In this document: positions 4,209 through 63,078 of the stretch, piece after piece
Position numbering within the stretch: the first letter of the stretch is position 1
Layout of the letters: each line of letters opens with the position of its first letter
Assembly (NCBI RefSeq): GCF_000186865.1
Contig: NW_008705585.1
Coordinates: 16,195 to 80,194 of the forward strand
DNA: 64,000 nt
Source: Aureococcus anophagefferens
Lineage: Eukaryota; Sar; Pelagophyceae; Pelagomonadales; Pelagomonadaceae
Reading direction: 5' to 3'
The notes under the pieces: generated by a model
Seen by the model: the letters and a program-made list of their open reading frames with translations, nothing else
Databases searched by the model: none
What the model was told of the DNA's origin: nothing
Position numbers and translations under genes: made by a program

Positions 4209-5154
4209 CTACCGCCCCGCCTCGGCGACCTTGGTCACGGCGCACGCGGACGCGCGGAGGTCGCACTCGAGCTCTAGGACGAGGAGCGGGTCCGCCGCCG
4301 GGTCGAAGGCGACGTCGCCCGGCAGGGCCTTCGAGGGGAGGGGGGAGAGCGTGACGACGTCGTCGAGGCTTTCGGGCTGGCGGAGCAGGAGCATGAGGTC
4401 CGCCTCGTGGACGTACTGCGTCGCGCCGCCGCCGCGCTTGTTCGCCGCGTCCGACGCGCGGTCCGCGGCCTTGGGGTCCCAGAAGGCCTCCACGGGCGTC
4501 CCGCTGTCGCCGCGGCTGCCCCGCGCGTCGTCGCTGTAGAAGAGCCTACCAAGCATGACGGTGACGATTTCTCATTGTTTTCCCACCCCAAATCTCTCGA
4601 AAATCGTCACGGCCACAGGACGCTGAGAAGAGCGGGATCGATCGGTCGCCGAGGTCCGCCAAACCCGTCGCGCGCAGCGCCGCGGCCCGGCGGCCCGGCG
4701 CGAGCACGAGGCGGCCGCAGAAGTAGCCGGGGAAGCCCGCCCGCTTGTAGGGCGCCGCGAGCGTCGCGTCGATGGCCGTCGAGAGCGGCACGCGCGCGAC
4801 GGCGAGCGGCGGCGTCGGCGGCCGCGCGGTATTCAGCGCGCGCAGGACCGCGTCCGCCTGCTGCCGCGTCTCGTAAAAAAAAAGAGCGCTCCGCACGCGG
4901 CCGCTCCGGTCGAGGTCGACGGACACGACGCCGCCGCCGGCCGGCGACACGAGCGCGAAGACCGACGCCGCGTCGAGGCTTGCCGGTAGGGGCTTTGGTG
5001 GCGGTGCTGGCTTTGCTGGTGCTGCGGTCGCTGCGGCCGCATCGGTGCGGATCGAAGCGACAGCGATGGCTGGCGTCGCAAGCACCGCTCGACGCGGCAC
5101 GGATAGCGCCTCACAGCAGGCCTGGCACGCGAGAATCAGGCTTGCCCATCGCAT
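4209..5154 (-). CDS. Tic22-like plastid protein (tentative), two exons
   Basis: Exons are 5154-4634 and 4545-4209, separated by a family C introner. The start is ATG 5154. The first ~30 residues (LILACQACCEALSVPRRAVL) are hydrophobic and then Arg/Ala-rich, as in a bipartite plastid presequence. The body shows VFALVSPAGGGVVSVDLDRS, SALFFYETRQQADAVLRAL, VPLSTAIDA and, across the splice, RSIPLFYSDD. This pattern (short-strand/helix repeat ending in 'vPvFf') resembles Tic22, a soluble intermembrane-space protein of plastid protein import. The spliced length is 285 residues. The assignment is by eye and could be wrong, but it is clearly one protein: only the spliced form joins the two halves of the IPLF-YSDD block. 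Confidence 0.55.
4546..4633 (-). mobile_element. introner, family C, acting as an 88-nt GC-AG intron
   Basis: On the minus strand the intron begins with the 8-bp TSD GCTCTTCT followed by CAGCGTCCTGTGGCCGTGAC and ends GCTTGGTAG. The TSD copy then begins the next exon. GTGACGATTT and AAATCGTCAC form the inverted ends. It is the same length (88) as the copy at 12082 and nearly the same sequence. Splicing at the TSD boundaries restores IPLFYSDD in frame. Confidence 0.9.
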
Positions 5155-5321
5155 TTTGGCCGCCTGATTTACGTCAAGTTGAACTCAGCGAGCTGTGGCA
5201 ATAGCACCAAAGTCTGGGCCGCCGTCGTGTGAAGCTCCGTCAAACGCGACACGGCCGCCGGGTGTCCTGAAGGAGAGCGGCTCCGCGACGTCCTGCGGAA
5301 GTTCCTGCGGAGGTTTGAATC

Positions 5322-7098: not shown

Positions 7099-7175
7099 CA
7101 GCGGCGGCCGTCTCCCGGCGGTGGCCTTCGGCTTCGGTGCAAAAGAATTAGCGCTAGGAAGCCCGGGGCTGCTCG

Positions 7176-8127: not shown

Positions 8128-11100
8128 ATGCGGGCTTTGCTATTCGCCTTGCTGCTCGCCGCGCGCCTCCGGGCCGCGGCATGCTTCGGCTACGAGTCCA
8201 TCTACGCGCGCATCATCGAGGAGCAGGTCCTCGTCAAGTTCACGGAGCACGTGACGATGGCGGGGACGATGATGACGGCCTTCAGCACGGGCTGGCTCTA
8301 CAACGGGACCGTGGTCCTCGACGACGTGCGGGCGCTGGTCTACACGCAGGCGCTGGCGGCGAGCGACGACGTCTATTTCGTGTGGACGGGCCATCCCTCG
8401 GGCGCGTTCGTGGGCTACTACAATAAGGGGTTCCTCGCGGCCGCGAACGGGAGCCGGGCGCTCGGGTGGGTCGCAGCGTCGAGCGACGTGTTTTTTCGGG
8501 CAACGCTCGCCGGGAGGCGAGAAGAAATCCAATTGCCCTCGTAGGTGGGTCGGCGACGAGAACTTCACGTGCCCGAGCTACGGCGTCGACGGCATCTGCC
8601 GCGCCTACTACGCCATCGACGCGGCCCGGGGCACGCCCCTGGACCAGTTCGACGGCATCGGCTACGACCCGCGGCTCCGGGCCTGGTACTACGAGATGGC
8701 GGACGCGTACGACGGCTATACGAGCGCGTCGGCGTGGAGCGGCATCTACCGCGACGCGACGCTGTCGGCGACCCAGCACTTCCCGGAGGATCTGAACACA
8801 TCGGTGCCGAGCAACGACCACGCCATGGGCCTCTGCAGCTCGCTCCTGGGGCTCGACGGCGCCTTTTTAGGCGTCGGCTGCACGGCGATCCTGCTCGGCT
8901 CGCTCGACGACGCGTTCCGGCTCGCCTTCGCCGACGTGGACCCGGCGTCCGTGCTCGCGTACATCCGGGAGGCGTCGAGCGGCTACGTCGTCGTCGCGTC
9001 CGTGCCCAACGCGACGCAGCTCCACGCCCCGTCGACGACGCTGAACTCGGCGAGCGAGGTGCTCTTCTACGAGGCGCTGAGCCACCCCAACGACCTCATC
9101 CGGACGTCCGCGGCGCACCTCGAGGCGACGGGCTCCTGGAACCGGACGGGCGGGCCCTTCGACCACGCGGGGCTCTACTACGACGTCGCCGCGATCACCG
9201 ACAACGGCCTCGACTGGAACCTCGTCACGCTCCAGCGCCAGTCGTGCCCCGAGGGCTACTACACGTCGCTCGCACCGGGCGACTACGGGAGCTGCCAGGC
9301 GTGCCAGGCGCCGACGACGACGGCGGATAACAACAACGACACCTACTGCCCGCTCTGCGCCGTCGGCTACTACCGCGACGGCGGCGGCTGCCGGGGCAGG
9401 ACAAGAGAGCGACATTCCCAACTTCAAAGGCTCATATCTCGGCCATTTTCCACTCGTTTCGGCTGACTTTTGGACGAGCGATCATCTCTCGGAACGGTCT
9501 CGACGCGTGGATATGTTTTTTGTTACGCGCGCGCGCGGAACGTTGAAGCGACGTTGAATCTCTCTTGTCCTGCCCAGGCGGCTGCGCGGCCTGCCCCGCG
9601 ACGGGCTTCGTCTGCGACGCCGTGACCGTGACGCTGGAGACGCTGCCCCTCGACGCGGGCTACATGCGGCTCCACGACGAGAGCACGGAGGCGCTCGCGT
9701 GCCTCGGCGGGAAGACGGCGTGCCCCGCGGAGGCGGGCCGCGTCGGCTGCGACGGCGGCCACTTCGAGGCGTTCTCGCCCTACTGCTCCGTCTGCGAGCC
9801 GGGCTACTACCTCGACGCGACGCGGTGCGCCGCGTGCGGCCGGGGTTTAGGCGTCCGCGCGGGCGTCGGCTTCGCGCTCGCGGCGGTCGTCGTCTTGCTG
9901 GTGGCGCGGTACCTCGCGACGGCGGGGTCGTCGCGCGCGCAGTCCGCGAAGCTCGTGCGCCGCGAGCGGCTCTACAACAAGCTCAAGAGCAAGTGGCGCA
10001 TCGTCTTCGTGTCGTTCCAGATCGTCTACTCGCTGCCGAACCTGCTCAACGGCGTGCGCTTCCCGCGGCTCATGCGGGTCCAGTTCGAGGCGCTCCACGT
10101 CCTCACGCTCGACGTCAGCGCGATCTTCCCGCTCGGGTGCATGCGCGGCGGCGGCTTCTACGGGGGCCTCCTCTTCATCACGATCTGCCCCGTCGCCTTC
10201 GTGGGCCTCATCTGGGCCCTCATGTCGCTGCGGGCGCTGCGGCCGAGCGACGCGGCGACGTGGCTGGACGTCAAGGTCGCGACGGCGACGGCGACGGTCG
10301 TCGTGACCTACTTCGTGCTGCCGAGCGTCACGCTGAAGATCCTGCAGATCTTCGACTGCGAGGTGCTCGACGACGCCGGCGGCAAGCAGGCCTTCCTCTT
10401 CGCGGACTACTCCGTGCGCTGCGGCGGCTTCGACTACTTCGTGTACACGATCTACGCGATCCTCGCGGTCTTCGTCTGGCCCGTCGGCGTGCCCCTGCTC
10501 TACTTCACGCTCCTGCACCGGCACAAGCACGAGATCAACCCGTCCGTCGTCGTCGCGGCGCCCAGCGACGCGGGGAGCGCGCGCGCGCGGAGCGTCCACG
10601 CGGTCTACGGCCGCGCGTCCGCGTCCGCGGAGGCCCTCGCGTCCGAGGAGCGGCTCGCGCGGCAGCTCGAGATCCGGTCGGCCAACGGCAACATCCGCCA
10701 CCTGGGCCTCCTCTACACGCCCTACGAGCCCCACATGTGGTGGTGGGAGATCGCGGAGATCGCGCGGCGGCTGCTCTCCACGTCCTTTCTCCTCGTCGTG
10801 AGCCGCGGCGCCGTGGGGCGCCTCTTCTTCGGGATCATGATCTCGCTCGCGTCGACGAAGCTCCTCGCGGTCTTCGAGCCGTACATCAGCGACAGCGACG
10901 ACAATTTGGCGGAGATGCTCCAGTGGCTCGTGACGGTGAACCTGCTGGCGTCGCTCGGCATCGTCGTCGGCCACGGCTCGGCCGCGCTCGCGGTCGCGAG
11001 CATGAGCCTGCAGGTCGTCGCGCTCGGAGCGGCCTTCGCGCTCATCAAGAACGACATCACGCGCGAGCGCAAGGTCTTCGAGGAGGCCATGGAGGAGCTC

Positions 11101-11563: not shown

Positions 11564-12884
11564 ATGATGATGCGCTCCGCAATCATGCGCTCGGCGCTGT
11601 GCCTAGCGGTCGCGTCGGCGCTCGTGCAGCCGCGCGGCCCCGGCGTGCGGCCCCTGAAGAACGCCGGGGCCGCGCGGCCCCTGAAGACGCGCCGCGTCGA
11701 CGCGCCGCCGACGATCGTGAGCGCCAAGGGCGACCTCGAGGGCGACGCCAAGGTCGGCTCGAGCGGCTTCCGCCAGCTCGTGGGCTTCCGCGGCGCCGCG
11801 GACACGGAGGACGAGCCGCTCTGGAAGATCCGGGTCCAGCTCACGAAGCCCGGGACCTGGGTGCCCCTCATCTGGGGCGTCGCCTGCGGCGCGGCGGCGT
11901 CGGGCAACTACCGGTGGCCGCTGCTCGGCGGCGCGAGCCTCGCGGAGGGCGGCGAGGACCTGGCCAAGGCCCTGACGTGCATGGTCCTCAGCGGACCCTG
12001 CCTCACGGGCTTCTGCCAGACCATCAACGACTGGTACGACCGCGACCTCGACGCGATCAACGAGCCCTACCGGCCGATCCCGTCGGGCCCAGCGTCCTGT
12101 GGCCGTGACGATTTTCGAGAGCTTTTGACCGGGGAAACGATGAGAAATCGTCACCGTCATGCTTGGTAGGTCGGGCCGCATTACCGAGGAGGAGGTCTTC
12201 CAGCAGGTCTACGCCCTCTTGTTTGGCGGCCTGGCCCTCGCCTTTGGCTGCGACGCCTGGGCGGGCCACGACGTCCTGGGCAACCCGCTCAACTCCATCG
12301 GCCTCATCGCGTGCTTCGGCGCCGTCGTGTCCTACCTCTACTCGGCGCCGCCCTTCAAGCTCAAGGCCGAGGGCTGGCGCGGGTCCTTCGCGCTGGGCGC
12401 GTCCTACATCGCGCTGCCCTGGTGGTGCGGCCAGGCCATGTTCGGCGAGGTCGGCGCGGGCGCCGCGGGCGGCGAATTGACGCCCGACGTCGTCGTGCTG
12501 ACGGTGCTCTACTCCTTCGCGGGGCTGGGCATCGCCATCGTCAACGACTTCAAGTCCATCGAGGGCGACCGCGAGCTCGGCCTCAAGTCCCTGCCCGTGG
12601 CCTTCGGCATCGACGGCGCCAAGTACATCTGCGCGGGCATGATCGACGTCACGCAGATCTCGGTGGCGGCGTACCTCGCGTACATCGGCGAGACGACCTA
12701 CGCCTTGATCCTCGGCGGGCTCATCGCGCCCCAGATCTGGGCCCAGACCCAGTACCTCCTCAAGGACCCCGTCAAGTACGACGTCAAGTACCAGGGCACG
12801 GCCCAGCCGTTCCTCGTCTTCGGCATCCTCACGACCGCGCTCGCCGTTTCTCATCATGGAGGCGCGCTCGCGGGCCTCGCCTAG
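11564..12884 (+). CDS. CHLG: chlorophyll synthase (UbiA prenyltransferase), two exons
   Basis: Exons 11564-12081 and 12170-12884 give 410 residues. It attaches the phytyl or geranylgeranyl tail to chlorophyllide in the plastid, the last step of chlorophyll a synthesis. The leader MMMRSAIMRSALCLAVASAL is a stramenopile-type signal peptide with an ASA-like cleavage region before a transit peptide. Active-site motifs are NDWYDRDLDAINEPYRPIPS and, later, NDFKSIEGDRELGLKSLPVA. The C-terminal YDVKYQGTAQPFLVFGI is also characteristic of ChlG rather than other UbiA enzymes. A family C introner splits the most conserved motif; splicing restores IPSGRITEEEV exactly. Three ATGs in a row precede the leader (11564, 11567, 11570), and I took the first. 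Confidence 0.95.
12082..12169 (+). mobile_element. introner, family C, 88-nt GT-AG intron
   Basis: The TSD GTCGGGCC occurs at 12082-12089 and 12170-12177. The body begins CAGCGTCCTGTGGCCGTGAC and ends CACCGTCATGCTTGGTAG, with GTGACGATTTT and AAATCGTCAC as inverted ends. Splicing rebuilds the conserved ChlG motif IPSGR. The same TSD occurs in the GH3 gene at 56315-56400. Confidence 0.95.
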
Positions 12885-17681: not shown

Positions 17682-20600
17682 ATGGGCGCCTCCTCGTCCA
17701 AGGACCTCGACGAGCCCCTCATCGGCTACAAGATGCCGTCGGACCGGTCCCGCGTGCGGTCCATGCGGTCCTACCTCCCCCCCGGCTCCACGGGCCCGTC
17801 CTTCGACCCGGGCTTCGACGGCTACGACTTCCTCATCATCTTCGCGCGGCCCGGCCACGTCGTCGACGGGTCCTCCGACGCCGCGCGCGCGAGTTGGAAG
17901 TTCGCCGAGGACGTCTGGTTCCGCGCGACGCCCGGCGACGAGGAGGACAAGGAGGCCGGCGTCGCGAAACTGCGGTCCGCCTGGCGGGAGCGCTTCCGCG
18001 TCGACGACGTGCGGCCCGACGACACGATCCCGCTCGACGCGTTCCGCGACCTCGCGCGCGAGCTCGCCGTCGAGATCCTGTCCGGGGGCGCGCAGGGCCT
18101 GCAGGTCCGCGCGGAGATCTCGGCCTGCGGCACGCGCGTCTACTGCCTCGCGCGCGCGCGCGCCAAGGCGCTCGAGCGCGCCGCGTCCAAGTACAAGTAC
18201 AAGCTGCGCTTCAAGAAGGAGGTCGACCCGGGCCGCGCGTTCTGGCTCAAGTTCGGGAGCCACGACGAGGGCCTGGGCAAGTTCCCGGAGCTCGACGAGG
18301 ACGGGCGGCTCTACGACAAGCCCGCGGCGAACGAGCTCCTCGAGGACCTGTACCACGCCGGGCAGGAAACGAGTGATTCAATATCGCTTCAACATGAGTG
18401 TTCCGCGCGCGCGCGTTCCGGCAAAAGCATCCACGCGTCGAAAGCGCTCCCAGAGATGATCGCTCGTCCAAAAATTAGCCGAAGCGAGCGGAAAACGATC
18501 GAGATAGGAGCCTCCAAAGTTGGGGTTTCGCACTCTTTTCCTGCCCAGGTACCACGCGGGGAAGATCGGCCCGGGCGACATGGCCGTCTTCGACGGCGAC
18601 GAGCCCGGGCCGCGCCACTGGAGCCGCCGCGTCCACGTGCTGGAGCGCGTCGCCGACGGCGTGCCCGTGACCAACGCGTACCCGGCGTTCGCGTCCTGGG
18701 AGAACAAACCCGCGCACCGCCACCTCTTCGAGACGTACGCGACCGCGCGGGGCCCGTCGCTCTTCCTGCCCAAGGACCGGCTGCTGCTGACGAAGCGGCT
18801 CCTCGACGAGCGGCTGCTGTTGGACGTCCTCGTGGAGCAGGGCCTCGTGCCCGCGTGCTTCCCGCTCCACGCGGCGTCCGAGGGCGACGGCGTCCGGCTC
18901 CGCGACTTCCAGGACGCCTGGGTCTACTGGTGGGCCTGCGACCGGGACCTCGCGGGGTCGCCCAAGGTCTCGGGCGTCGGCTACGAGTCGGGCACCGCCT
19001 GCGCGTACCTGTCGCGGCCCTGGGCGCAGCCGCTGCGCCTCGCGCGCGCCTACTTTGGCGAGAAGGTCGCGCTCTACTTCGCCTGGGCGGGCTACTACGG
19101 GTTGTGCCTGCGCACGCCCTGCGTCGTCTGCGCCGCCGGCGCGGCGATCGGCTACACCTACGGCGACGTGGGCGAGCTCGGCGAGCGATTGGGCCTCGCG
19201 GTCTTCATGGTCGCCTGGTCCGCGTCCTACGTCGAGGGCTGGGCCCTGGAGCAGACGCTCGTCTCGCTCAAGTGGGGCACCTACGGCCACGGCGAGCGGG
19301 AGATCTTCCGCCCGGAGTTCGAGGGCGACCCGGCGGAGCCCCGGAAGCTGTCACCGATCACGAACCACCGCGAGACCTGGTACCCGGAGTCGAAGCGGGA
19401 GGCGACGAAGCTCGGCAACGCCGTCGTCCTCTTCGGCGCCGTCGTGCTGCTGCTGTGCTGCGTCGCGGGCGTCTTCGCGGCCGAGTTCGAGCTCGTCGAG
19501 CGGGGGCTTGACGTACGTCGCGTACCTCGCGAACCCGGCGCTCGCGTTCCTCATCCAGGTCGCGTCGCGCTCCTACGCGGGCCTCGCGACGCGGCTCAAC
19601 GACGCGGAGAACTACGCGACGGAGTCGGACTACGTCGACCACCTCATCGCGAAGAAATTCGCGTTCGAGGTCATGAACAACTACGCGGCGCTCGCGTTCA
19701 CGCTCTTCGGCAAGTTCGGCTACCTCGACTGCGTCGGCCCGTCCGCGCCGGGCTGCGTGCGCGACGCGCGGGCGCTCATGCTCACGATCTTCTTCGCGCG
19801 CTACGTCGCGTGCCTCTACGAGACGTTCTTCGGCGACGTCGAGGACGAGGACGCGGCGGGCGCGCCGCCCGTCGCGGCCGAGGTCCTGGCGCGCCAGCCC
19901 GACGAGGGCAACTTCGACGACTACGAGGCCATCGTGCTGCAGATGGGCCTCGTCGTCAACTTCTCCATCGTGCTCTTCATCGTGCCGCCGCTGGCGGCCG
20001 TCGAGGTGCTCTTCCAGCTGCGGGCGGACGCGTTCCGGCTGTGCCGGCGCGCGCGGCGGCCCGTGCCGAGGCGCGCGGAGACGGTGGGCGCCTGGAGCGA
20101 CCTGATGCGGGCCTCGGGCTTCTTCGCCATCTTCGTCAACGCGGGCGTCGTCGTCTTCGCGACGGAGGAGGCGCAGCGCGCGCTCTCGTCCAACCAGCGC
20201 ATCCTCGCGTTCCTGGCCCTCGTCCAGGCGCTGGGCATGGTGCGCGTCGTCGTGCCGCTCGTGGCGTCGTCGGAGGACGTCGCGTCGGACATCCTCCGGC
20301 GCAACGCGCACGTCGTCCGCCGCCACACGCGGCCCGTCTTCGCGGACGACGACGACGACGACGGCTCCGGCGGCGGCGCCGAGGACCGCAAGGACGACGA
20401 CCGCAAGGTCGGCAACGTCGACCGCGCCGCGGCGCTGCGGGGGGACGCGGCGCTGACGGCGGAGGGCGCGCGGCGCCTCGCGTACCTCGAGGCGCGGAAG
20501 GCGAATCTGCAGATGGACCTGCGCATGGAGCGGCAGAAGTACAAGCGCTACCTCGAGGCCGAGGACTTCCGCGAGGACTGCGGCGTGTCCTACTCGAAGC

Positions 20601-29525: not shown

Positions 29526-31282
29526 ATGCCGTCCGGCGGCCATCGCAGCGAGCGGCGGCGGTCGCACCGCAAGTCGAAGAAGACGCCGCCCGCCGCCCAG
29601 GCGCCGCCGCCGCCGCCGCCGGCCGTGGTTCACTACACGTGCTTCCAGTGCGACCCCTTCCACTCCTCCGCGCCGGCGCCGGAGGAGACGGCGGTGGCCG
29701 CCGTCGTCGCGGAGCAGTACGTCTTCGACGAGGAGAAGGTCGACGGCAAGGACGAGGCCGGCGACGAGGAGGCAGACGCCGGCGCCGCGGCCGCGGCCGA
29801 CGGCGAATCCGCCGGCGACGCCGAGCCCCCGGCGCCCCCGGCGGCCGTCGAGGAGGTGGACGTCGCGGAGCCCGACGACAAGGCCGCGCACGACGTCGAC
29901 CTCTTCCTCGTCGACGAGGACGGCGAACGGCGGAAGGAGATGGTGACGGACTTCGTCGAACGCGCGTCGACGATGTACTACGCGAGAATTCAGAGCGAGC
30001 TCCTCGCGGGCCCCGACGACAAGCCGCTGCCCTGGGACATGGTCCTCATGGTCGCGACGGTGAGTTTGACGATGATCGCGTCCATGCTCTGCATGACGAC
30101 GGTGCGGAGCGTCGTCGACGAGTACATGGAGTGGGAGGACGACGCGGTCTTCGGGTTCGGCAACCGGCCCTACTACACGGTCTGGACCCACATCTGGCAC
30201 CTAACCGCCGGCATCCCCATCCCGACGGCCGTGTCGCTCATGATGGTCGTGGTCATGGCGACGCTGTCGACGGTGGAGCGGCTCAAGGACGACCACGTGA
30301 TCTGCTGCCTGATCGCGCGCGAGCTGCTGAACAAGCGGCGCTACGCGACGCGCGTGTTTCTTGTGCGCCTGGATCCACGTGCTGCGCATCTGCCTGACGA
30401 TCTCCTACCTCAACGCGACGACGTTCCTCATCGGGTCCGCGGACGGGCCGCTGAACATCATGCTCAACGCGTTGGCCGTCGGCTTCCTGCTGTGCCGAAA
30501 CCAACCACTGGTTTGGGTGGTCCTGACCAAACTTGAGAATTCTCTAGCTCGGTCAAATCAAAGTCGATTCGGCTGATTTTTGGACGGATCGATCGCTCTC
30601 GTCGAGTTCTCGAAGCCCAGCCGAAGAGCTTGTGTCAAAACATTCGAATACGCTCACATTGAAGTCGGGTTGAAGATTTGGTTTCGGCACAGGCTTCCTG
30701 CTCGAGTTCGAGGCGACGCTCGCGGACTGCTCCTGGCGCGGGCTCGTGCCCCACCGCAAGTCCGTGGAGCGGCGCTTCGAGGTGCCGCGCGAGCTCTTCG
30801 AGGGCGTCGTCGACGACATCCTCAAGCTCAAGAACGCCGCGTCCGTCTCCCGGCGCGCGTCGCGCGTCCTCGTCGCGGCGATCGGGTCCTGCGTCGCGAC
30901 GACGGCCTGGCTCATGCAGGAGCGCGTCGCCGACGGCCGCGCCTTCCACACGGGCCACACCTCCCTGATCATCCACGGCTTCGACGCCTTCGTCGACTAC
31001 GACGTCGCATCGCACGCGCTCGTCGGCGGCGATCTCGCGATGACGTTCGCGTGCTCCCTCGCCGTCATCCTCGCCACGGCGCCCGTCCTCAAGGCGGGCA
31101 CGCACCACAAGGCCCTCTTCCTCCGCGTCCTCCTCCTGCACTACGCCGTGTGCTTCGGCACCTACACGATCCTCGTCCACGTCCTCTTCGACAGGACCGT
31201 CCTCGTCCTCAAGGACAACTCGCTCTCGGAGAGGCACGCGGGCACGCGCTTCGACACCTACGGCAAGAGCGGCAGGCGCTGA
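29526..31282 (+). CDS. multi-pass membrane protein of unknown family, two exons (one-base frameshift)
   Basis: Exons 29526-30481 and 30693-31282 give about 514 residues once one base is removed. The N-terminal 150 residues are Pro/Ala/acid-rich and probably cytosolic. Hydrophobic segments include DMVLMVATVSLTMIASMLCM, IPIPTAVSLMMVVVMATLS, VLRICLTISYLNATTFLIG, VLVAAIGSCVATTAWLM, LAMTFACSLAVILATAPVL and VLLLHYAVCFGTYTILVHVL. I do not recognise the family; a channel or transporter is possible. The frame changes at about 30357-30362: removing one T from the TTT gives RVFLCAWIHVL. At the family B introner only a GC donor at the start of the TSD keeps the downstream frame (VGFLLEFEATLAD). Confidence 0.65.
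30482..30692 (+). mobile_element. introner, family B, 211-nt GC-AG intron
   Basis: The TSD GCTTCCTG occurs at 30482-30489 and 30693-30700. Inverted ends are CTGTGCCGAAACCAA and TTGGTTTCGGCACAG. The core CGGCTGATTTTTGGACGGAT is in sense orientation. The GT inside the left inverted end would shift the frame, so the GC at the TSD is the supported donor. Confidence 0.9.
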
Positions 31283-48804: not shown

Positions 48805-51800
48805 ATGCGGTCCCTCGTCGCCCTCGCCGCCCTCGCCGTCGCCGACGCCGGCAAGAAGGCCAAGGGCGAGTACTCCTGGGACCAGGCCAAGTGCCTCTTC
48901 AAGAAGCGGAAGATCGTCTTCCTCGGAGACTCGAACACGCGCTTCTTCAGCTTCCAGTTCGCGACGTTCCTCGAGAAGGGCGAGTACCGGAGCGACGACT
49001 ACGACAAGTGGGGCGAGCCCGGCGACGACTACGACAAGGAGTACGAGGACGAGACGTGGACGGACTGGAGCCGCAAGTCGAAGAAGAGCGCGACGCACGC
49101 CCAGCACCTCGTCAAGACGTATGATGATCTCGACTCGCGGCACACGTTCTTCTTCCTCCAGAAGACGTGGTTCGGCGACGAGACGACCAAGGAGGAGAAC
49201 ATGGACGACATCGCGGCCAAGGTGAAGAAGGACAAGGTCGACATCGTCGTCATGAACAGCGGCTGGTGGGATTTGAAGGGCTGGGGCGAGAAGGACTACG
49301 ACGACTGCGGCGAGGACTGGGAGGACGACTGCGGCGACGCGTACGAGCGCGACGCCGCGCGCTTCGACCCGACTTCAATCTGCGCGTATTCGAATGTTTC
49401 GACACAAGCTCTTCGGCCGTGCTTCGAGAACTCGACGAGAGCAATCGATGCGTCCAAAAATCAGCCGAATCGACTTCGATTTGCCCGAGCTAGAGGATTT
49501 CAAAGTGGTCGATTTCCACAGGCGCGACGTGAAAAAGGCCGCGGACGAGATCTTCTCGGGAGCGAAGGCCGCCGTCTGGCGCGACTGCTCCTGCTGCGGC
49601 GACGAGACGTCCCACGAGAAGTCCGTCAAGCGGCTCAACGCCATCGCCAAGGACGTCATGGACGACCGCGGCTACCCCGTCGCCGAAATCTTCGATTTGT
49701 ACGGCAAGAAGGATTTGGACGACGCGACGGTCGACGGCACGCACGCGACGCCCGAGTACTACCACGCGTGGACCATGAAGATCATGACCGGCGTCGAGGC
49801 GCAGCTCAAGACGGGGTGCCTCGGGGACTCCTACGAGGACGACGAGCCCGCGAGCTGCCCGGGTCTCGAGGCCGTGGCCTCCGACGGCTGCCCCGCGGAC
49901 GCGGACCTCGTGACCTGCGACGACGCGTCGTTGCAGCCCGGCGACCTCTGCGAGGGCGACGGCGAGTGCGGCACGGACAAGAAGCTCAACAACTGCCCCG
50001 ACGGCACCGGCGGCGCGGAGGCCGACGTCTACGAGGTCCTCGGGGCCGACGGCGCGCCGACGACGACGCCGCGGCCCTTCGCGTTCTCGACGCCGCGGCC
50101 GTCGCGCCGCCCCACGCCGAGGCCGTCGCGAAAGCCCACGCCGCGGCCGACGCCGCGGCCGACGCCGCGGCCGACGCCGCGGCCGAGCGCGGCCGTCGCC
50201 TGCGACAACCGCGCGTCGCCGTACATGGACGCGAAGGGCTATGGTTGCACGACGTGGAACGGCCTGCTCGCGCGCTGCCGCGACGACGCGGACTGGCGCG
50301 CGGCGCAGTACTGCCGCTTCAGCTGCGATGAGCTCGGCGTCGGCTACGACGGTTTTACGTGCGCGGCGCCGTCCCCGACGCCCGCCCCTTCTACGCCCGC
50401 CCCCACCGCGCGGAACTGCCCCGTGCTCGAGGCCATCTCGTCGAACGCGTGCCCCGACGACGCGCCGCGAAGCGCCTGCGACGCCGCGGGGCTCCTGCCC
50501 GGCGACTTCTGCTCCGGCGACGGCGAGTGCGCCACGGACGAGGCGCTCGACAACTGCGGCGCCGCGGACGTCAGGGCAGCACAAGGGTGCGAAATTCCCA
50601 ACTTCAAAGGCTCATATCTCGGCCGTTTTCCGCTCGTTTCGGCTGATTTTTGGACGAGTGATCATCTCTCGGAACGGTCTCGAAGCGTGGATGCTTTTTC
50701 CGGAACGCGCGCGCGCGGAACGCTCACGTTGAAGCGACGTTGAATCACTCTTGTGCTGCCCAGGCGGACGTCTACGTCGTGCTCCGCGCGTCGGCCGCGA
50801 CGGCGGCGGGCTCGTCGAAGAAGTCGTCGGGCGGCCTCTCGTCGTCCTTGCTCATCGTGCTCTTCGTCGTCGCGGTCGCGTTCCTCGGCGGCGCCGTCGG
50901 CCTCGCCGTCTGCGTCTGCTGCCGGCCCGGCCGGCCGTCGAACCCTGTGCGGAAATCAAATCTTCAACCCGACTTCAATGTGCGCGTATGCGACCGTTCT
51001 GACGCGAGGTTTTCTGCTGTGCTTCGAGAGCTCGATGAGAGCAATCGATCCGTCCAAAAATCAGCCGAATCGACGTCGATTTGACCGAGATAGAGAGTTC
51101 TGAAGTTTGGTGGGGACCCCCCAAACGAGTGGTTGATTTCCACACAGGTCGAACCCGATGAAGCGGACCGCGGCGCCCGCGCGCGCGAACCCCGTGAAGG
51201 CCGGGGCGCTCGCCGAGGAGGCGCCGCCGGAGGAGGACGACGACGTGCGGCGGCTGCGCGAGCTGCGGTCCCGGCGCGACGAGCCCTGGGTCGCGTCGCG
51301 CGCGACGCCGCCGGGGCGGACGCCGGGGCGGACGCCGAGGCTCTCCGTGAGCGGCGCGGACAACGGCTACCGCGAGGACCTCGCGCGCCTCGCGCAGCTC
51401 CAGCGGTCCGCGAACCGCGGGCGCCGGGCGCCGCCGCGCGTCGAGGAGACGGAGGAAGACGACGACGCGTCGCGGCTCCGGAATCTCACGGAGCGCCGCG
51501 CGCCGCGGGCCCGCGCGCCGCCGCCCCGCTCCGCGCCGCGGGCCCGCGCGCCGCCGCCGGCGCACGACGACGCGAGCCTCTTCCGCCGCGAGGGCGCGTG
51601 GGCGTCGCTCCGCCGGTCGAGCTCGCGGCGCCGCGCGGACCGCATCCAGACCTACGCGACGGCCGTCGACGCGTTCCCCGCGGGCTTCGCCGGGGAGCTC
51701 GACCTCGTGCCCGGCGACCGCATCACGATCCTCGACTCCAACGACGACGAGTGGTGGCGCGGCGAGACGCCCGACGGCGCCGTGGGCGTCTTCCCCTGCT

Positions 51801-54828: not shown

Positions 54829-56831
54829 TTAAAAGAACTTACGCGTCCAGTTGGCGACGCCGCCGAGCGTCCCCGGGAGCGGCTCCTCCGCGGGCGGCGG
54901 CGGCGGGAGGTCGTGGTCGAGGAGCAGCTGGACGTGCGCGTCGTTGCGGAGCACGCGGGAGCCCTTGAGCTGTTGCGGGCTCGCGCCCTCGTCGAGTTGC
55001 TTCCGTCGAAGCGCCTCGAAGGCCGCCGCGCTCACGTCGACGACGACGGGCGGCGAGATCGCGCCCTTGTCGCGCCAGGTCGCGTAGACGGGATTTTCCT
55101 CGCGGAGCGCGGCGTCGAGGCGGTCCGCGGCGGCGCCCGGGTCGCCGCCGCCCAGCGGCGCGAGGAGGTCGTAGCCCGGCGCCTCGACGTCGTCCGCGCG
55201 CTCCACCGCCGCGAAGACGGCGACGTCCGGCAGCGCGCGATCGACGGCCGCCTGGAGCTGCGCCTCCGACGTCTTCTCGCCCCGCGCGTTCAGGACCTGC
55301 CCCGCCCGGTAGCGGAACTCGACGAGGGGCGCGCCGCCGTGGCGGCCGACGGCGCGGACGACGTCGCCGAGCCGATAGCGGCAGAGCCCGCCGAGCGTCG
55401 TGACCACGAGCTCGTAGTCGGCGCCCGCCTCCAATTCGCCCGCGAGCACCGTCGCGTCGCCGGCCTCGCCGTCGACGACGGGCAGGAACTCGAAGACCAT
55501 GGCCCGCGGCACGAGGCAGTAGGCCGCCTCGCCGTCGTCGCGGGGCTCGAGCGACACGCCCATGAGGCCCTCGGACGCGGCCAAGATCGTCGACCGGATC
55601 GGCACGCCCGCGCCCGCGCCCGCGCGCAGGCGCCGCGCGTGGGGCTCGAACGCGCCCGTCGCGTTCGCCAAAATCAGCTTCAGCTTCGGCCAGAGCCGCA
55701 GCGCGAAGCCCGCGGCGCCGTCGCCGAGCGCCGCGCGGATCTCGCCGGCGCGCGCGGCGTCGCCGGGCCCGAGCGCGGCCTCGAGCTCCGCCGCGAGCGC
55801 CGGCCCGACGACCGCCGCGACGGCCGCGTCGAGGGTCCCGGACTCGACGTCCGCGGCGACGCGCGCGTTGAACGCCGGGTCGCCGAGGAGCCCGACGAGC
55901 CGCGCGGGCATGGACACGAAGTTCGCCTGCCGAGGACGCGCGTCGCGTTTCGCGCGAACGGGGACGCCGGGCGGCGCCTCCAGCACCCCGAGGTCGCGGT
56001 CGCGCGCCGCGAAGAGGCAGTGCACGTACAGCGCGGACGCCTCGTCCTCCACGGCGTAGCCCGCCTTGGGCGTCGAGTAGAGCAACGGCCGGAGCCGCTC
56101 GAAGGACGGGTCCTTGGGCCCCGACGAGTTCGGGCCCACCCTCAGGCCCGACGGCGCCTCGCGGTGCCGCGGCTGGAACGCGAGCTTCGTCGTCCGCTGG
56201 AGGTGGTCGAGGTGGCCCAAACGATTCAGCACGTCGAAGACCACTAAAATCCCGCGAGCGAAGAACGTCGACGACATCTCCGGCGTCGTCGGCAAGAGCG
56301 CGACGCGGCCCGACCTACAAGTATGACGGTGACGATGTCTCATTGTTTCCCCACCCAAAATCTCTCGAAATCGTCACGGCCACAGGACGCTGGGCCCGAC
56401 GTGCCGGACGTCGCCGCGAGCATGCGCTCCGGCGACGCGTTGAGCACGGGCCCGCCGTGCTCGTAGATGCGGTCCACGTAGGGCGCGACGTCCGCGTAGG
56501 TCGTCAGCGGGTGCGCCGCGCGGAACGCCGCCACGACGTCGTCCGCGGCCGCGAGCGCGGCGAAGCCGCGGTCGACGCCGTAGGCCGTGTCCTTGTTGCG
56601 CTCGAGCAGCGATTTCAGGAGCGCCGCCTGCGTGTCTTCGAAGCCCGCGCAGTCCTGGTCGTGGCGCCAGCGCGCGTAGGCGCCGGCCACGCGCAGCGCG
56701 TCGAACATGAAGAACTGCTGCACGGCCGTGGACAGCGTGTGCGTCTCCTCGGCGCGATCGCGCGACGCGAAGCGGCCGACCTGCACGGCCGCGGCCGCGG
56801 CGCCGACGGCGGCGGCGCGGCGCGCGGACAT
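54829..56831 (-). CDS. GH3-family acyl-adenylate amidosynthetase-like protein, two exons
   Basis: Exons 56831-56401 and 56314-54829 give 638 residues from ATG 56831. GH3 enzymes are acyl-adenylating enzymes; plant members conjugate auxin or jasmonate to amino acids. Motif 1 (ATP/AMP binding), AATSGTSGRVALLPTTPE, is created only after splicing. Later family blocks include RSTILAASEGLMGVSLEPRD, YELVVTTLGGLCRYRLGDVV and EFRYRAGQVLNARGEKTSEA. The N-terminus (SARRAAAVGAAAAAVQVGRF) is Ala-rich and weakly hydrophobic. The algal substrate is unknown; do not assume auxin. The family C introner lies inside the nucleotide-binding motif and has the same TSD as the chlorophyll synthase copy. Confidence 0.85.
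56315..56400 (-). mobile_element. introner, family C, 86-nt GT-AG intron
   Basis: On the minus strand the TSD GTCGGGCC begins the intron and is repeated after CATACTTGTAG. The body starts CAGCGTCCTGTGGCCGTGAC. Two bases shorter than the other family C copies. Splicing rebuilds the GH3 motif SGTSGR. Confidence 0.94.
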
Positions 56832-56974: not shown

Positions 56975-59828
56975 ATGCTGAAGGTCGCGCTGCTCTGCGC
57001 CGGCGTCGCGGCCCAGCAATGCGCGCGCGTGGCGACGGACAAGAGCGGCCTGAAGAAGCGGCACATCCTCTCCGCCGTCGGCGGCTTCTACGCGGCCCAC
57101 GTCGTCGTGAGCCAGCTCGGGCGGCGCAAGAGCGGCGCGCTGGCGGCGCTCGAGTTCGACATCTTCGAGCGCTTCGCGTACCCGTCGATGGCCGCGCAGT
57201 CGGACGACGCGTTCGAGTGGCTCGTCTACGCCTCCAGCTCCGCGCCGCGGCGCGTGCTCGAGGGCGCGCGGCGGCTCCTGGACGGGCACGCGGGCTTCCA
57301 CCTCATCGTCGTCGACCGCAAGGCCTGCGCGGCGGAGCGGCGGCGGACGCCCGAGTTCTGGCCGCTGGGGGACCAGCTGGAGCTGCTGGGCTCGTGGACG
57401 GGCCTCGCGACGCGAGAGCGCGACAACCTCGTGCTCCTGACGACGCGCCTCGAGGCGACGGACGCGCTGCCCGTCAACGCCGTCGCGTCCATCAAGGACG
57501 GCGCCGTGCGGGTCCCCGCGAGCTTCCCCAAGGAGGCCGCGGCCGTGCGGCTCCTCTGCTGGGCGTCGTCGCGGACGCTCGACCTCGCGGGCGTTTTCGA
57601 CGTCGCCGAGGCGGCCATGGCGCCCGAGGCCTGCGCGCGCACGGGGCTCACGCAGGTCCTCACGTCCCAGGCCATCGCCAAGGCCAAGGGCTCCGTCTTC
57701 CGCTTCTTCCCCGCGCGCGCGCGGCGGAAGACGTGGACCGTCGTCCTCGAGGGCCGCCGCAACTCGGCGCCCCTCGCCGTCGTCTCGAGCGCCAACGGCG
57801 CGCCGGCGCCCGCGGCGCCGCCGAAGCCCACCGCCCTGGCGCTGCCCCGCCTCGCCGCCGCGTACAACGTGTCGACGTCAGGGCAGGAAAAGGGTGCGAC
57901 ATTCCCAACTTCAAAGGCTCCTATCTCGGCCGTTTTCTACTCGTTTCGGCTGATTTTTGGACGAGCGATCATCGCTCGGAACGGTCTCGAAGCGTGGATG
58001 CTTTATCCGGAACGCGCGCGCGTGGAACACTCACGTTGAAGCGAACTTGAATCTCTCTTTTGCTGCCCAGGTCGACGTCCGCGCGCGACCTCGCGAATCT
58101 CGCGGCGCGCGAGAAGACCCTGAGGCCGGCGCCCTGCGACCTCGCGGGCGACTGCCTCGCGGCCATCGTGCTGTTGAGCGACGCCGACGCCCGGGGCCCG
58201 ACGCTGGCGGCGCTGCGCGCGAGCTTCCTCGACCACGTGGCCCGCGAGCGCGGGAAACGAGCGCGACGTGCCCGACTTCAAAGGCTCCGACCTCGGCCGT
58301 GTTCCGCTCGTTTCGGCCGATTTCTGGACGAGCGATCATCTCTCGGAACGGTCTCGGAGCGTGGATGCTTTTTACGGGACGCGCGCGCGCGGCACACTCA
58401 CGTTGCAGCGACGTCGAATCACCCAGGTGGCCCACAAGGCGATCTTCGCGGACTCGGAGCTCCCCGCGCTGGGCGTCGAGGCCTGCTGCGGCGGGCGCGA
58501 CCTGGGCAGTAACCTCGCGTCGGCCCAGCTCAAGCTCGAGCACGTCTACGCCCGCGCCTACGCGCGCTTCCGGCCCAAGGGCGTGCGCTACTACGTCTTC
58601 AGCGAGCACGACGTCTACTGGAACCGCCACGCGCTGCCGCGGTTCCTCGACGCCGTGGCGGCCCAGGTGCCGCTCAACCCGGACCAGCTCGACGCGGCGG
58701 CGCCCGTGATCAGCGGCGGCGGCGGCAATTTAGGCGTGCGCACGTCCGTCTACGGGTGCTTCGCGATCCTGAACGCCGAGGCGCTCCGGCCGCTCGCGGA
58801 CGACGCCGTGCTCAAGGTCTGCAAGGCGGGCCTCTTCGTGCGCAACCCCTGGAAGGAGTGGGTCAAGCCCGGCGCCCTCTACAACAACGACCACCTCCTG
58901 ACCTACTGCGCGGACCCCGCGGAGCAGGACGTGCCCGACAGGGCAGGAAAAGAGAGCGAAATTCCCAACTTCAAAGGCTCCTATCTCGGCCGCTTTCCAC
59001 TCGTTTCGGCTGATTCTTGGACGAGCGATCATCTCTTGGAACGGCCTCGAAGCGTAAATGCTTTTTCCGGAACGCGCGCGCGCGGAACACTCATGTTGAA
59101 GCGAACTTGAATCACTCTTGTCCTGCCCAGGTGCCCGAGCGGCGGACGCCGGAGGTCGGCGGCCCCGCGCGCGTCGCGTCCCGCGACGACTACAAGTACG
59201 AGGACACGTTCTGGTGCAACGCGCCGTCGGCCGTCGCGTCGGGCAACTGGCGCTTCCACTACAACGACAAGCGCTACACCCTCGACAGCGTGCTCGACGC
59301 GTGGTCGACCGCGGACGTCGTCCTGGACGGGGCAGAAGATCAGCCGAAACGAGCGGGAAACGGCCGAGAAAGGAGCCTTTGAAGGTGAGAATTTCGCACC
59401 CTTTTCTTGCTCAGGTCCTGGACATGCGGACGAAGACCAAGGGGTCGGACTTCGACGTCGCCGGCGACCGCGGCGCCTTCGAGGCCTGCGCCCGGCGCAT
59501 GGAGGCGGCCTGCGGCCCGCGGGCCGCGGCGCTCCTCCACGTCGTCGCCATCCACCACCTGAGCGCGGACGACATCTCGCGCGTCGACGGCGACTCCGCG
59601 AAGGCGCGCGCGTGCGCGCTCGAGCACGACGACCTCGCCGCCTGCCTCGCGGGGCCCCTCGCGGGCACGGCGCTCCACCCGAACTGCGCCGGCGACGTCG
59701 CCGCGAACCCGGCCAAGCTCCGCGCGGTCGCGCGGCGCTCCGCGAAGGCGTCGCCGTCGTCGGGCAAGAAGCGGCCGCGGCCGCAGAAGCGCCGCCGCGG
59801 CGGCTTCGGGCGGCGAACGGACCTGTAG
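56975..59828 (+). CDS. glycosyltransferase-like protein with four introners, five exons
   Basis: Exons 56975-57870, 58071-58236, 58427-58930, 59131-59319 and 59415-59828 give 722 residues. The first exon resembles the putative rhamnosyltransferase family (PF11316-like): FDIFERFAYPSMAAQSDDAF, EWLVYASSSAPRRVLEGA, LLTTRLEATDALP. Later exons hold a second glycosyltransferase-like half: YYVFSEHDVYWNRHALPRFL with an acidic-His motif, ISGGGGNLGVRTSVYGCFAI, and EDTFWCNAPSAVASGNWRFH. The N-terminus (MLKVALLCAGVAAQQCARV) looks like a signal peptide. Probably a Golgi or secreted enzyme building surface polysaccharide; donor and acceptor are unknown. The C-terminus is basic (GKKRPRPQKRRRGG). Four of the window's introners sit within 1.55 kb here and all keep the frame. 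Confidence 0.7.
57871..58070 (+). mobile_element. introner, family A, 200-nt GT-AG intron
   Basis: The TSD GTCGACGT occurs at 57871-57878 and 58071-58078. Inverted ends are GGGCAGGAAAAG and CTTTTGCTGCCC; core in sense orientation. Splicing gives AAYNVSTSARDLA. Confidence 0.93.
58237..58426 (+). mobile_element. introner, family A, diverged 190-nt GT-AG intron
   Basis: The TSDs are GTGGCCCG (58237-58244) and GTGGCCCA (58427-58434). Both inverted ends have decayed (CGCGGGAAACGAG; GAATCACCCAG lacks CTTGTCCTG), but the core is clear. It is an older insertion that still keeps AG and the donor. Confidence 0.88.
58931..59130 (+). mobile_element. introner, family A, 200-nt GT-AG intron
   Basis: The TSD GTGCCCGA occurs at 58931-58938 and 59131-59138. 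Inverted ends are GGGCAGGAAAAG and CTTGTCCTGCCC; core in sense orientation. Splicing gives EQDVPERRTPEVG. Confidence 0.93.
59320..59414 (-). mobile_element. introner, family A, internally deleted, reverse orientation, 95-nt GT-AG intron
   Basis: The TSD GTCCTGGA occurs at 59320-59327 and 59415-59422. The left end CGGGGCAGAAGATCAGCCGA joins straight to the core, and the right end is TTTTCTTGCTCAG. About half the element is missing. Splicing gives ADVVLDMRTKTK. Confidence 0.9.
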
Positions 59829-59857
59829 GGTTGGGCCGCTTGAATCTACATGGATTC

Positions 59858-60912: not shown

Positions 60913-61088
60913 TTCGTCAAAAGTGGCCCGGAAAGACGGCTTAGGCCGAGTCAAAGTCCATGCTGTCGCCTAGTAGACTGCAATGCAACAGTCCTGCACC
61001 AACTTTCGATGCCGCACGGGTGCTGTTCTTCTTTTGGTTTCAGAGCGGTCGATAGGCTGCCCAGCCGGTGGTATTCCAGAGCCACACC

Positions 61089-63078
61089 ATGGCGGAACCG
61101 CAGCCCGAGGCGCCGCCGTCGCCGCGGCCGAACATCAAGGGCGAGTACAAAACGCCCGCCGCGCCCAAGCCGGCGACCTGCGACCTCCACGACGTCGCCA
61201 AAGACGCCACCCCGCCGCCGCAGAAGAGCGCGCTCCTGCTCATGGTCGTCGTGCCCGCCGTCGTCGCCCTCTACGCCTGCCTCGTCGCCGCGGGCCGGGC
61301 GTCGACGGCCGTGCTCGCCGTGCCGGCCGCGCTGGCGCTCCGCGCGCTCGTCGACAAGCGCGATCGCGCGGCGTGGGACGACGCGGCCGTCGCGTTCTGG
61401 GCCGGCCGGGCGGCGGCGGCGTCCGGCGTGTCCATGGCCGGCGCCGGCGCCGCGCCCCTCGCCGTGTCCGTCGCCGCGGCGCCGCTCCTGGGCGCCGTCG
61501 CGGCGTTCCTCGCGCGGTCGGCCTTCGACCACGCGGCCGCGGCCGAGACGACGACGACCTACCGGTCGACGCGCGTGGACCGCGTCGCCCCGCGCGCGCT
61601 GGCGACCATGGCCGCGAAGCGCGAGCTGCTGGCGGCCCTGGCCTTCGGCGGCCTCTTCCGCGACGGCTTGTACGCCGCGGTCGCGATGGTCGCGCTGCCC
61701 GCGGCCGCGGAGGCCTTCGCGTGGCTCAGCCGCTTCGTCGCCGTGCGGCGCGCCGTCGCCGAGCAGCGGTGGGCCGCGGCGCACCACACGAAGAAGAGCG
61801 AGGCGCTGCGCCTGAAGACCTACCCGCCGGCCTACCCGAACGGCTGGGTCCCGCGTGGAAATCAACCGCCGGTTCGGGACGTCCCGACCAAACTTTGAAA
61901 TTCTCCGGCTCGGCCACATCGAAGTCGATGCGGCTGATTTTTGGACGGATCGATCGCTCTCGTCGAGTCCTCGAAGCGACGCCGAAGCGTCTGGTCCAAA
62001 CCGTTCGATGACGCGCACGTTGAAGTCGGGTGGAAGATTCGAGTTCCTCGCAGGCTGGTTCGTGCTGGCGTCGTCCGACGAGCTCGTCGCGGGCGCGCCG
62101 CCCGTCGCCGTCGAGGCTTTGGGGCGCGAGTACGTGCTCTGGCGCGGCGCGACGACGGGGCTCGTGGGCTGCCTCGACGCCTACTGCCCCCACATGGGCG
62201 CGCACCTCGGCGTCGGGGGGAAAGTCGTCGGCGACTGCGCGCAGTGCCCCATGCACCTCTGGACCTTCGCGGGCGACGGCACGTGCACGGACGTGCCCTA
62301 CACGTCGAAGAAGATCCCCGCGGCGGCCCACGGCGCGCCCCACGCCGTCCACGAGTGGTACGGCAACGTCTTCGTCTGGTTCCACGCGGACGGCGCGCCG
62401 CCGAGCTACGAGCTCCCGAAGCTGCGCATGCTCAGCGCGGACGAGCGGCGGCCCGTGCGCTACTGCGGCTCCATGGCCGTCGACGTCGACATGCACATCG
62501 CCGAGTTCGCGGAGAATTCCGCGGACTTCGCGCACTTCCAGCCCCTCCACGGCGACATGGTCGTGCCGTGGTTCGGCGGCTCGATCCCGCTCGTGACGGT
62601 GAAGCACGTGCCCGGCTGGAGCTGCGGCAGCGGCGACGGCGACGACGATGGGAAGCAGTGCGCCTGGTTCCTGGACCACGCGTCGCTGAAGTTCAACGGC
62701 GCGGACGTCAAGGGGTCGGACGCGGACGCGACGATCACGTTCGTCGGGCCCGCGTCGGCGGTCTTCTTCACCTTCGAGACGCCCATCGGCGGCATCACGC
62801 TCTTCCACTGCCACACGCCCCTGAGCCCGCTCAAGCAGAAGATCCACTTCTCCTGGTACGCGGACCTGACGATGCCGTCGGCCTTGGTCTGGTACGTCGT
62901 CGGCAACTGGATCGCCCAGTGGCAGGCCGACGTCTTCGTCTGGTCCAACAAGCGCTTCCGCGACAAGGCCGTCCTCGTCCAGGGCGACGGGCCGCTGCCG
63001 AAGCTGCGCAAGTGGTTCCGCCAGTTCTACTCCGAGGGGTCCGAGGCCGCCGCGAACAAGGACAGCCTCGACTGGTAG
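61089..63078 (+). CDS. Rieske-type sterol 7-desaturase (DAF-36/Neverland-like), two exons
   Basis: Exons 61089-61842 and 62054-63078 give 592 residues from ATG 61089. The family introduces the C7-C8 double bond of cholesterol-type sterols, using a Rieske [2Fe-2S] cluster and a mononuclear iron. The Rieske ligands are CPHMGAHLG and CAQCPMHLW (CxH...CxxH). The iron site is ENSADFAHFQPLH (N..D..H....H). The conserved entry YPNGWF is rebuilt by splicing. The N-terminal 240 residues hold several hydrophobic segments (LLLMVVVPAVVALYACLVAA; TAVLAVPAALALRALV; APLAVSVAAAPLLGAVAAFL), so the enzyme is a membrane protein, probably in the ER. The N-terminal membrane region is longer than I expect for the family. 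It may also act on other Rieske oxygenase substrates. Confidence 0.85.
61843..62053 (+). mobile_element. introner, family B, 211-nt GC-AG intron
   Basis: The TSDs are GCTGGGTC (61843-61850) and GCTGGTTC (62054-62061), 7 of 8 matching. The left end is CCGCGTGGAAATCAACC; the right end TTCGAGTTCCTCGCAG has diverged. The core CGGCTGATTTTTGGACGGAT is in sense orientation. The TSD donor restores the conserved YPNGWF. Confidence 0.9.

What the first reader, a model, noticed from the sequence alone, without database searches (positions are those of the whole stretch)
4546..62053. Dense introner system: 18 copies in three families act as introns, each flanked by an 8-bp TSD
The sequence shows 9 family A (about 192 bp), 6 family B (about 203 bp) and 3 family C (about 80 bp) elements inside coding regions. 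All have 8-bp TSDs and end in AG, and splicing from the first TSD base to the acceptor rebuilds the pre-insertion frame every time. Modal intron lengths are exactly 200, 211 and 88 nt, which implies recent spread. Introners that move as DNA transposons are established in Aureococcus and Micromonas; three families co-occurring at this density is worth genome-wide counting.
Basis: partly seen in the sequence, partly recalled or inferred. Interest (0 to 1): 0.9.

Follow-up and report, generated by a model that had tools for sequence, protein, structure and literature searches.

The report
Jumping DNA that becomes introns
This alga carries thousands of short mobile DNA pieces that land in genes and are predicted to be cut cleanly out of the message as new introns; the phenomenon is already known in the brown-tide alga it very probably is, but the copies show how little of a landing site is needed to make an intron start.

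Summary
The genome is very probably Aureococcus anophagefferens, for which transposon-made introns are already published (Huff 2016, recalled; later papers seen in part). Core patterns match 2078 (A), 1529 (B) and 188 (C) times genome-wide; the window is about three times denser than average. In 182 sampled copies: strand called from flanking codons alone, the frame continues in 159 of 164; the co-opted donor is G-C or G-T with no further consensus, GC in 87 of 139; A and B are relatives with interiors inverted to each other; relative to the gene B lies both ways (22:25), A mostly one way (56:18), C one way (26:0). In A the interior seems to flip between fixed ends. The donor result could explain this alga's GC-AG intron excess, called an enigma in 2011. 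Splicing was not observed directly.

The parts
4546..4625 (-). introner C, 80 bp, intron 88 nt, TSD GCTCTTCT (GC donor), TAG acceptor
   Evidence: TSD 8/8, frame continuous
9392..9577 (+). introner A, 186 bp, TSD GCGGCTGC (GC donor)
   Evidence: TSD 8/8, frame continuous
12090..12169 (+). introner C in a chlorophyll synthase gene, intron 88 nt, TSD GTCGGGCC (GT donor)
   Evidence: splicing at the TSD start restores the motif NEPYRPIPSG
18358..18548 (+). introner A used in the opposite orientation (interior inverted relative to the gene), TSD GTACCACG (GT donor)
   Evidence: TSD 8/8, frame continuous
30490..30692 (+). introner B, opposite orientation, TSD GCTTCCTG (GC donor)
   Evidence: TSD 8/8, frame continuous
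33075..33266 (+). introner A, TSD GCGGAGCC (GC donor)
   Evidence: TSD 8/8; left flank too weak to call the frame
33971..34173 (+). introner B, TSD GCCAAGGT (GC donor)
   Evidence: TSD 8/8, frame continuous
35015..35209 (-). introner B, opposite orientation, 195 bp, TSD GTCCACGA (GT donor)
   Evidence: TSD 8/8, frame continuous
39766..39957 (+). introner A, TSD GCGCGGTC/GCGCCGTC (GC donor)
   Evidence: TSD 7/8, frame continuous
49355..49521 (+). introner B, shortened to 167 bp, TSD GCGCGACG (GC donor)
   Evidence: TSD 8/8, frame continuous
50572..50763 (+). introner A, intron 200 nt, TSD GCGGACGT (GC donor)
   Evidence: TSD 8/8, frame continuous
50945..51147 (+). introner B, intron 211 nt, TSD GTCGAACC (GT donor)
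   Evidence: TSD 8/8, frame continuous
56315..56392 (-). introner C in a GH3-family gene, 78 bp, TSD GTCGGGCC (GT donor)
   Evidence: frame continuous; the A. anophagefferens protein P0123 runs through the junction without extra residues
57879..58070 (+). introner A, intron 200 nt, TSD GTCGACGT (GT donor)
   Evidence: TSD 8/8, frame continuous
58245..58426 (+). introner A, diverged, 182 bp, TSD GTGGCCCG/GTGGCCCA (GT donor)
   Evidence: TSD 7/8, frame continuous
58939..59130 (+). introner A, intron 200 nt, TSD GTGCCCGA (GT donor)
   Evidence: TSD 8/8, frame continuous
59328..59414 (+). 87-bp derivative of A (A's left part, inverted), TSD GTCCTGGA (GT donor)
   Evidence: TSD 8/8, frame continuous
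61851..62053 (+). introner B, opposite orientation, diverged, TSD GCTGGGTC/GCTGGTTC (GC donor)
   Evidence: TSD 7/8, frame continuous

Best explanation
These are introners: short non-autonomous DNA transposons (MITE-like), very probably of A. anophagefferens, that insert into exons, duplicate 8 bp of target, and are removed as spliceosomal introns. The 3' splice site (CAG in A and B, TAG in C) is the element's own end; the 5' splice site is the first two bases (GC or GT) of the upstream TSD copy. Removing TSD copy 1 plus the element restores the old coding sequence exactly. A landing site needs only G-Y on the coding strand at the first duplicated base, plus AG at the downstream element end; copies in genes that break this are rare. 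B's mostly matching terminal repeats give it CAG at whichever end is downstream, so it works in both orientations. A and B descend from one element whose two strands are both used as introns. Shown here: anatomy, TSDs, codon-based strand and frame, orientation counts, homology. Inferred: transposition by an unseen transposase, splicing itself, purging of wrong insertions.
For: TSDs. Strand called from flanking codons only: both flanks coding on one strand in 164 of 176 tested elements (11 weak, 1 discordant; 6 more not tested for short flanks); frame continuous in 159 of 164 against 1/3 by chance (the codon model was trained on part of the same DNA, without using TSDs or splice polarity). With 7-8/8 TSD (n=147) donors as called are GC 88, GT 52, other 7; by eye five of those 7 are one-base register slips and two (L024, L068) look real; ends as called are AG in 140 of 147 (CAG 116, TAG 24). 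Donor surroundings -6 to +8 match the coding background except +2. Conserved motifs restored: kinesin SL|GGN (GC donor), CLC M|PLAG (GC), chlorophyll synthase PI|PSG (GT, family C), GH3 SG|TSG (GT, family C). A against reversed B: alignment score 72, best of 500 shuffles 40. Species: the spliced GH3 differs from the A. anophagefferens protein P0123 at 2 of the first ~265 residues (counted by eye); 49.05 Mb and about 70% GC fit a published 49.9 Mb, 70.5%.
Against: No RNA evidence was available. No autonomous partner was found: four of five transposase-family searches gave no match, in three of those four with silent controls (one search had ringing controls); the fifth (PF13359) gave matches without A or B ends nearby in the two loci fetched. 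5 of 164 copies are not frame-continuous. Four protein checks were uninformative: the first kinesin junction, the ABC transporter and the hydroxyacyl-CoA dehydrogenase fall beside alignment gaps, and one query had no match. A passage in PMC7789003 says A. anophagefferens introners have canonical splicing motifs, at odds with a GC majority. Against the species name: the best named match of a purple acid phosphatase was Chrysophaeum taylorii (58%), and no A. anophagefferens protein was seen among the 120 listed of 719; over the whole gapped model P0123 is 69.6% identical.
Confidence: 0.95

Rival explanations
1. The elements spread as RNA, by reverse splicing of intron copies into genes, rather than as DNA transposons.
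For: Most sampled copies lie in exons (164 of 176 tested), as expected for reverse splicing; Micromonas introners, reported in sense orientation only, were read as intron transposition tied to transcription and splicing in PMC3879977 (passages read).
Against: 8-bp TSDs and terminal inverted repeats. B occurs in both orientations relative to the gene, 22:25: a reverse-spliced intron should keep one strand.
Confidence: 0.03
2. Transposon insertions that are translated or break the gene, not introns.
For: No RNA data here; P0121, a metagenomic gene model, starts inside the family C element of the GH3 gene (read by eye).
Against: The rule G-Y at the TSD start plus AG at the downstream end holds on the coding strand in nearly all of 147 copies, at all three codon phases. 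The A. anophagefferens GH3 protein model runs through the site.
Confidence: 0.02
3. G-Y at the TSD start is the transposase's target preference and has nothing to do with splicing.
For: G at TSD base 1 is nearly invariant. One copy with both flanks non-coding (L113) also starts with GT.
Against: For B, whose ends mostly match, a target preference would put G-Y on either gene strand; it is on the coding strand in 47 of 47. TSD positions 3-8 show no clear preference.
Confidence: 0.07
4. Family C carries both splice sites (donor GTCC at element base 5) and adds 12 nt to the message, as reported for family 4 of an Aureococcus sp. in PMC9860276 Fig. 2F.
For: C begins CAGC|GTCC, so that donor would add 8 + 4 nt; the published example (positions 3289-3365) is about as long as C minus 4 bp; 12 nt keeps the frame, so the frame test cannot separate the two.
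Against: If the internal donor were used the TSD need not start with G-Y, yet it does in 23 of 26 C copies as called. In chlorophyll synthase 4 extra residues would fall inside PIPSG, which matches the solved structure without a gap when splicing starts at the TSD. I did not see the published element's sequence, so its identity with C is a guess.
Confidence: 0.1

Closest known systems
Introner elements of Aureococcus anophagefferens (Huff, Zilberman and Roy 2016, Nature; not held, recalled only; mentioned in passages of PMC9860276, PMC9481584, PMC7789003 that I read)
   Same: Very probably the same species; length near 200-210 bp, TIRs, direct repeats (passages); one splice site carried and the other co-opted, hundreds to thousands of introns (recalled).
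   Different: Nothing shown to differ, except that a passage in PMC7789003 speaks of canonical splicing motifs while GC donors prevail here. Whether the 2016 paper reports two-way use, the inverted A/B kinship or the G-Y-only donor I could not check.
Introners of Symbiodinium microadriaticum (PMC9860276, Fig. 2B legend read)
   Same: Element carries the 3' splice site, the 5' splice site comes from the TSD, TIRs present.
   Different: 4-bp TSD instead of 8; no sequence comparison made.
Family 4 introners of Aureococcus sp. TARA_AOS_82_MAG_00129 (PMC9860276, Fig. 2F legend and methods passage read)
   Same: Same genus if the species call holds, 8-bp TSD, length close to family C.
   Different: Reported to carry both splice sites and to add 12 nt; family C here fits exact removal from the TSD.
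Introner elements of Micromonas (PMC3879977, passages read)
   Same: Repeat introns in genes, several classes.
   Different: There reported in sense orientation only; here B lies both ways.

Membership tests
Introners (intron-generating transposable elements) | Groups of introns alike up to near both splice boundaries, in many genes | tested here: met
Introners (intron-generating transposable elements) | Insertion creates a splice-competent intron without changing the coding sequence | tested here: met
   Frame continuity 159 of 164; four motifs restored. By sequence only.
Introners (intron-generating transposable elements) | Removed from RNA by the spliceosome | not testable with these tools
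   No transcript data for this genome
A. anophagefferens introners of Huff 2016 | Same species | tested here: met
   GH3 protein 2 differences in ~265 residues from P0123 (by eye); size and GC. Against: I saw no A. anophagefferens match listed for another gene.
A. anophagefferens introners of Huff 2016 | Sequence identity to the published families | not testable with these tools
   Paper not held
hAT superfamily MITEs | 8-bp TSD and short TIR (definition recalled) | tested here: met
hAT superfamily MITEs | Mobilised by a hAT transposase present in the genome | tested here: inconclusive
   No PF05699 or PF14291 match, but the controls were silent too
PIF/Harbinger MITEs | 3-bp TSD (definition recalled) | tested here: not met
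   TSD is 8 bp
PIF/Harbinger MITEs | Ends shared with a transposase gene of this type | tested here: inconclusive
   Four PF13359 matches; the two loci fetched, about 3.3 kb each, hold no A or B repeat with up to 2 changes

The most novel reading that the evidence does not exclude
A is an intron with fixed ends and a reversible interior. In 69 A copies chosen for a G-Y donor and an AG end, the base next to the 5' terminus is A, G or C and never T, whichever way the interior lies, so the second terminal base never matches between the two ends (0 of 69) although the repeat is otherwise nearly perfect. One copy outside that set (L024) has T there, and it lacks AG at its other end. Orientation changes 8 times on the interior's tree (tree poorly resolved), with no copy in the only splice-competent intermediate state: inversion of the interior between its terminal repeats is the simplest account. 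The two ends also tend to carry the same repeat variant, and that variant switches often on the tree, though less than at random. If true, splicing selects the ends while recombination reshuffles and flips the insides, which makes one transposon usable as an intron on both strands.
Probability: 0.35. Interest if true: 0.6.

Novelty: already known. Interest (0 to 1): 0.42.

Why it matters
Introners are a main documented source of ongoing intron creation (PMC9860276). The copies here measure what an exon must offer to become a 5' splice site in this alga: G followed by C or T, with no other clear preference from -6 to +8, and T favoured about 2.3-fold over C relative to what codons offer (derived). 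That could account for the 39.6% GC-AG introns of A. anophagefferens, which PMC3033335 (2011, passages read) called an enigma because its U1 RNA starts with the ordinary consensus: in a 70% GC genome most G-Y dinucleotides are GC. It also suggests that gene finders preferring GT-AG will misplace many of these introns.

Tried and rejected
Viral vector: a 19-mer shared by A and B matched one IMG/VR contig; the match does not extend beyond about 22-25 bases and lies in an open frame, so I take it as chance. One A element gave no match in the phage collection.

Autonomous partner: PF05699, PF14291, PF18758 and PF10551 gave nothing; PF13359 gave four matches, without A or B ends in the two loci fetched.

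Buried-acceptor idea (A avoids T at the 5' end because pairing would hide the AG): the predicted unpaired probability of the acceptor A is 0.86 in real A copies and 0.02-0.05 if paired, but B lives with 0.15-0.22, so it is not a general rule. Left open.

The first codon model trained itself onto the antisense frame; it was reversed and retrained, and only the second was used. An early TSD caller was replaced by projecting family-model ends. The GH3 search alone suggested another species (A. anophagefferens at 59%); the alignment showed a gapped gene model. No Rfam match in the window.
Full report
WHAT IS THERE. The window's donors are 9 GC and 9 GT.

WHERE. The window lies in a 49.05 Mb assembly of 86 contigs; window GC is 62-76% per 4 kb. 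The spliced GH3-family gene of the window differs at 2 of the first ~265 residues from a protein named Aureococcus anophagefferens (P0123; counted by eye); over the whole gapped gene model BLASTP gives 69.6% of 555. For another gene, a purple acid phosphatase, I saw no A. anophagefferens protein among the 120 listed of 719 matches, its best named match being Chrysophaeum taylorii at 58%. A published A. anophagefferens assembly has 49.9 Mb and 70.5% GC (PMC11237714, first of two parts read). I take the genome to be that species or a near relative.

HOW MANY. Core patterns with up to 3 mismatches match 2078 (A, 30 bases), 1529 (B, 30 bases) and 188 (C, 26 bases) times; the same patterns read backwards match 0 times. 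Diverged copies are missed, so these are lower bounds. The same patterns match 8, 6 and 2 times in the window: about three times the average density.

SAMPLE AND TESTS. I fetched 68 loci of about 3 kb and dropped 6 that overlapped the window or each other, then 79 loci of about 0.5 kb. A loci came mainly from the ordered exact-match list, B and C loci from the best DNA matches, so the sample leans to young copies. 188 elements were found, 6 partial ones dropped, 182 kept; at the ends set by the family model 133 have 8/8 and 152 have 7 or more. A codon model trained on part of the fetched DNA, elements masked, called strand and frame from 150 nt on each side, leaving both TSD copies out. 164 elements had both flanks coding on one strand, 11 were weak, 1 discordant, 6 had short flanks and were not tested; 159 of 164 were frame-continuous: A 80 of 82, B 51 of 51, C 28 of 31. 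Of the 176 tested one (L113) has no coding signal on either side; several others lack it on one side. Of 67 A copies from the ordered list, 61 lie in coding flanks (one of the other six, L095, is not among those listed as weak and seems to have had too short a flank), while about 81% of the window outside elements is coding by the same kind of model. Since random insertion would leave neutral intergenic copies, this points to an exon preference, to removal elsewhere, or both.

THE DONOR. In 139 clean copies the first TSD base is G and the second C (87) or T (52). This set was selected for G-Y, AG and frame; before that selection 140 of 147 copies with 7-8/8 TSD read GC or GT. Phases fit the supply of G-Y in codons (p = 0.22). 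Compared with phase-matched coding background no position from -6 to +8 departs clearly (chi-square at most 5.7) except +2, where T is 0.37 against 0.20. GC shares are 46 of 69 in A, 29 of 47 in B, 12 of 23 in C, against a reported family maximum of 50.0% (PMC9860276). GC-AG introns were reported as 39.6% of all introns of A. anophagefferens and their origin as an enigma, with a standard U1 5' end (PMC3033335, passages read); a passage in PMC7789003 instead calls the motifs of its introners canonical. Co-option of any G-Y by introners in a GC-rich genome would explain the excess. Huff 2016 may already say so; I could not read it.

CONSERVED PROTEINS. Joining at the TSD start restores known motifs: kinesin SLGGN and CLC PLAG across GC donors, chlorophyll synthase PIPSG and the GH3 stretch SGTSG across family C with GT donors (the CLC match is weak, E = 5e-7, but gap-free at the junction). 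Four other checks were uninformative: first kinesin junction, ABC transporter and hydroxyacyl-CoA dehydrogenase beside alignment gaps, and a query (L014, proline dehydrogenase-like by recall) without a match.

ORIENTATION AND KINSHIP. A aligns with the reverse complement of B over most of its length (score 72, 500 shuffles at most 40); C shows no kinship to either. Relative to the gene, interiors lie 56 same to 18 opposite in A, 22 to 25 in B, 26 to 0 in C. B's ends match each other at the second base in 40 of 47, so that CAG stands at either downstream end; A's match in 0 of 69 (both sets chosen for an AG end). Of all 74 A copies with 7-8/8 TSD one, L024, has CTG at its 5' end, and it lacks AG at the other. 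Among the 100 listed places of CTGGGCAG ends (1475 genome-wide, control 1) I saw, by eye, no pair facing each other about 190 bp apart, so symmetric A copies are rare. A's repeat variants at positions 9 and 11 agree between the two ends in 58 and 56 of 68 copies (permutation mean 33, 0 of 5000 as high). On the interior tree these variants change 16-17 times each, against shuffled means of 20-24: they follow the tree in part but switch often. Orientation changes 8 times against 14.6 in shuffles. The tree is poorly resolved (7 of 65 inner branches strongly supported), so change counts are rough. Interior inversion plus exchanged or copied ends is my reading; a need of the transposase for like ends, or RNA pairing of the ends, could cause the end-to-end agreement too.

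LITERATURE. In the listings of nine full-text searches and the passages I read I saw nothing on flipping introner interiors or a G-Y-only donor in this alga; but the key 2016 paper is not held, no preprints are held, and most listed papers were not opened, so absence cannot be claimed. PMC9860276 (Results section and some methods passages read) allows for opposite-orientation copies in its search, so use in either orientation is not a new idea.

VERDICT. Real, correctly interpreted, and already known as a system in the species it very probably is; the donor measurement and the fixed-end, flipping-interior pattern are the parts worth following.

Noticed in passing
window 12090-12169 and 56315-56392: Two unrelated family C insertions have the same 8-bp TSD, GTCGGGCC; probably coincidence in a GC-rich genome.
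   Followed up: no
G000:C1:1844908-1845419, C6:2536846-2537241, C34:12456-12965: PIF/Harbinger-type transposase domain matches (PF13359), without introner-like ends in the two loci fetched (L148, L149).
   Followed up: partly
L024:1436-1628: An A copy with 8/8 TSD that breaks the rule: no G-Y donor and no AG end in the gene sense, frame not continuous; perhaps a damaging or differently spliced insertion.
   Followed up: no
L113, element starting at 139: The one tested copy with no coding signal on either side, yet with a GT-starting TSD and a CAG end; a test case for target preference versus selection.
   Followed up: no
L095 (G000:C1:2490389-2491119): Two A copies in the same direction about 245 bp apart, leaving an exon of only a few dozen bases.
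   Followed up: no
P0121 (metagenomic protein): A database gene model appears to begin inside the family C introner of the GH3 gene (read by eye), so the insertion seems to exist in natural populations and to mislead gene prediction.
   Followed up: partly
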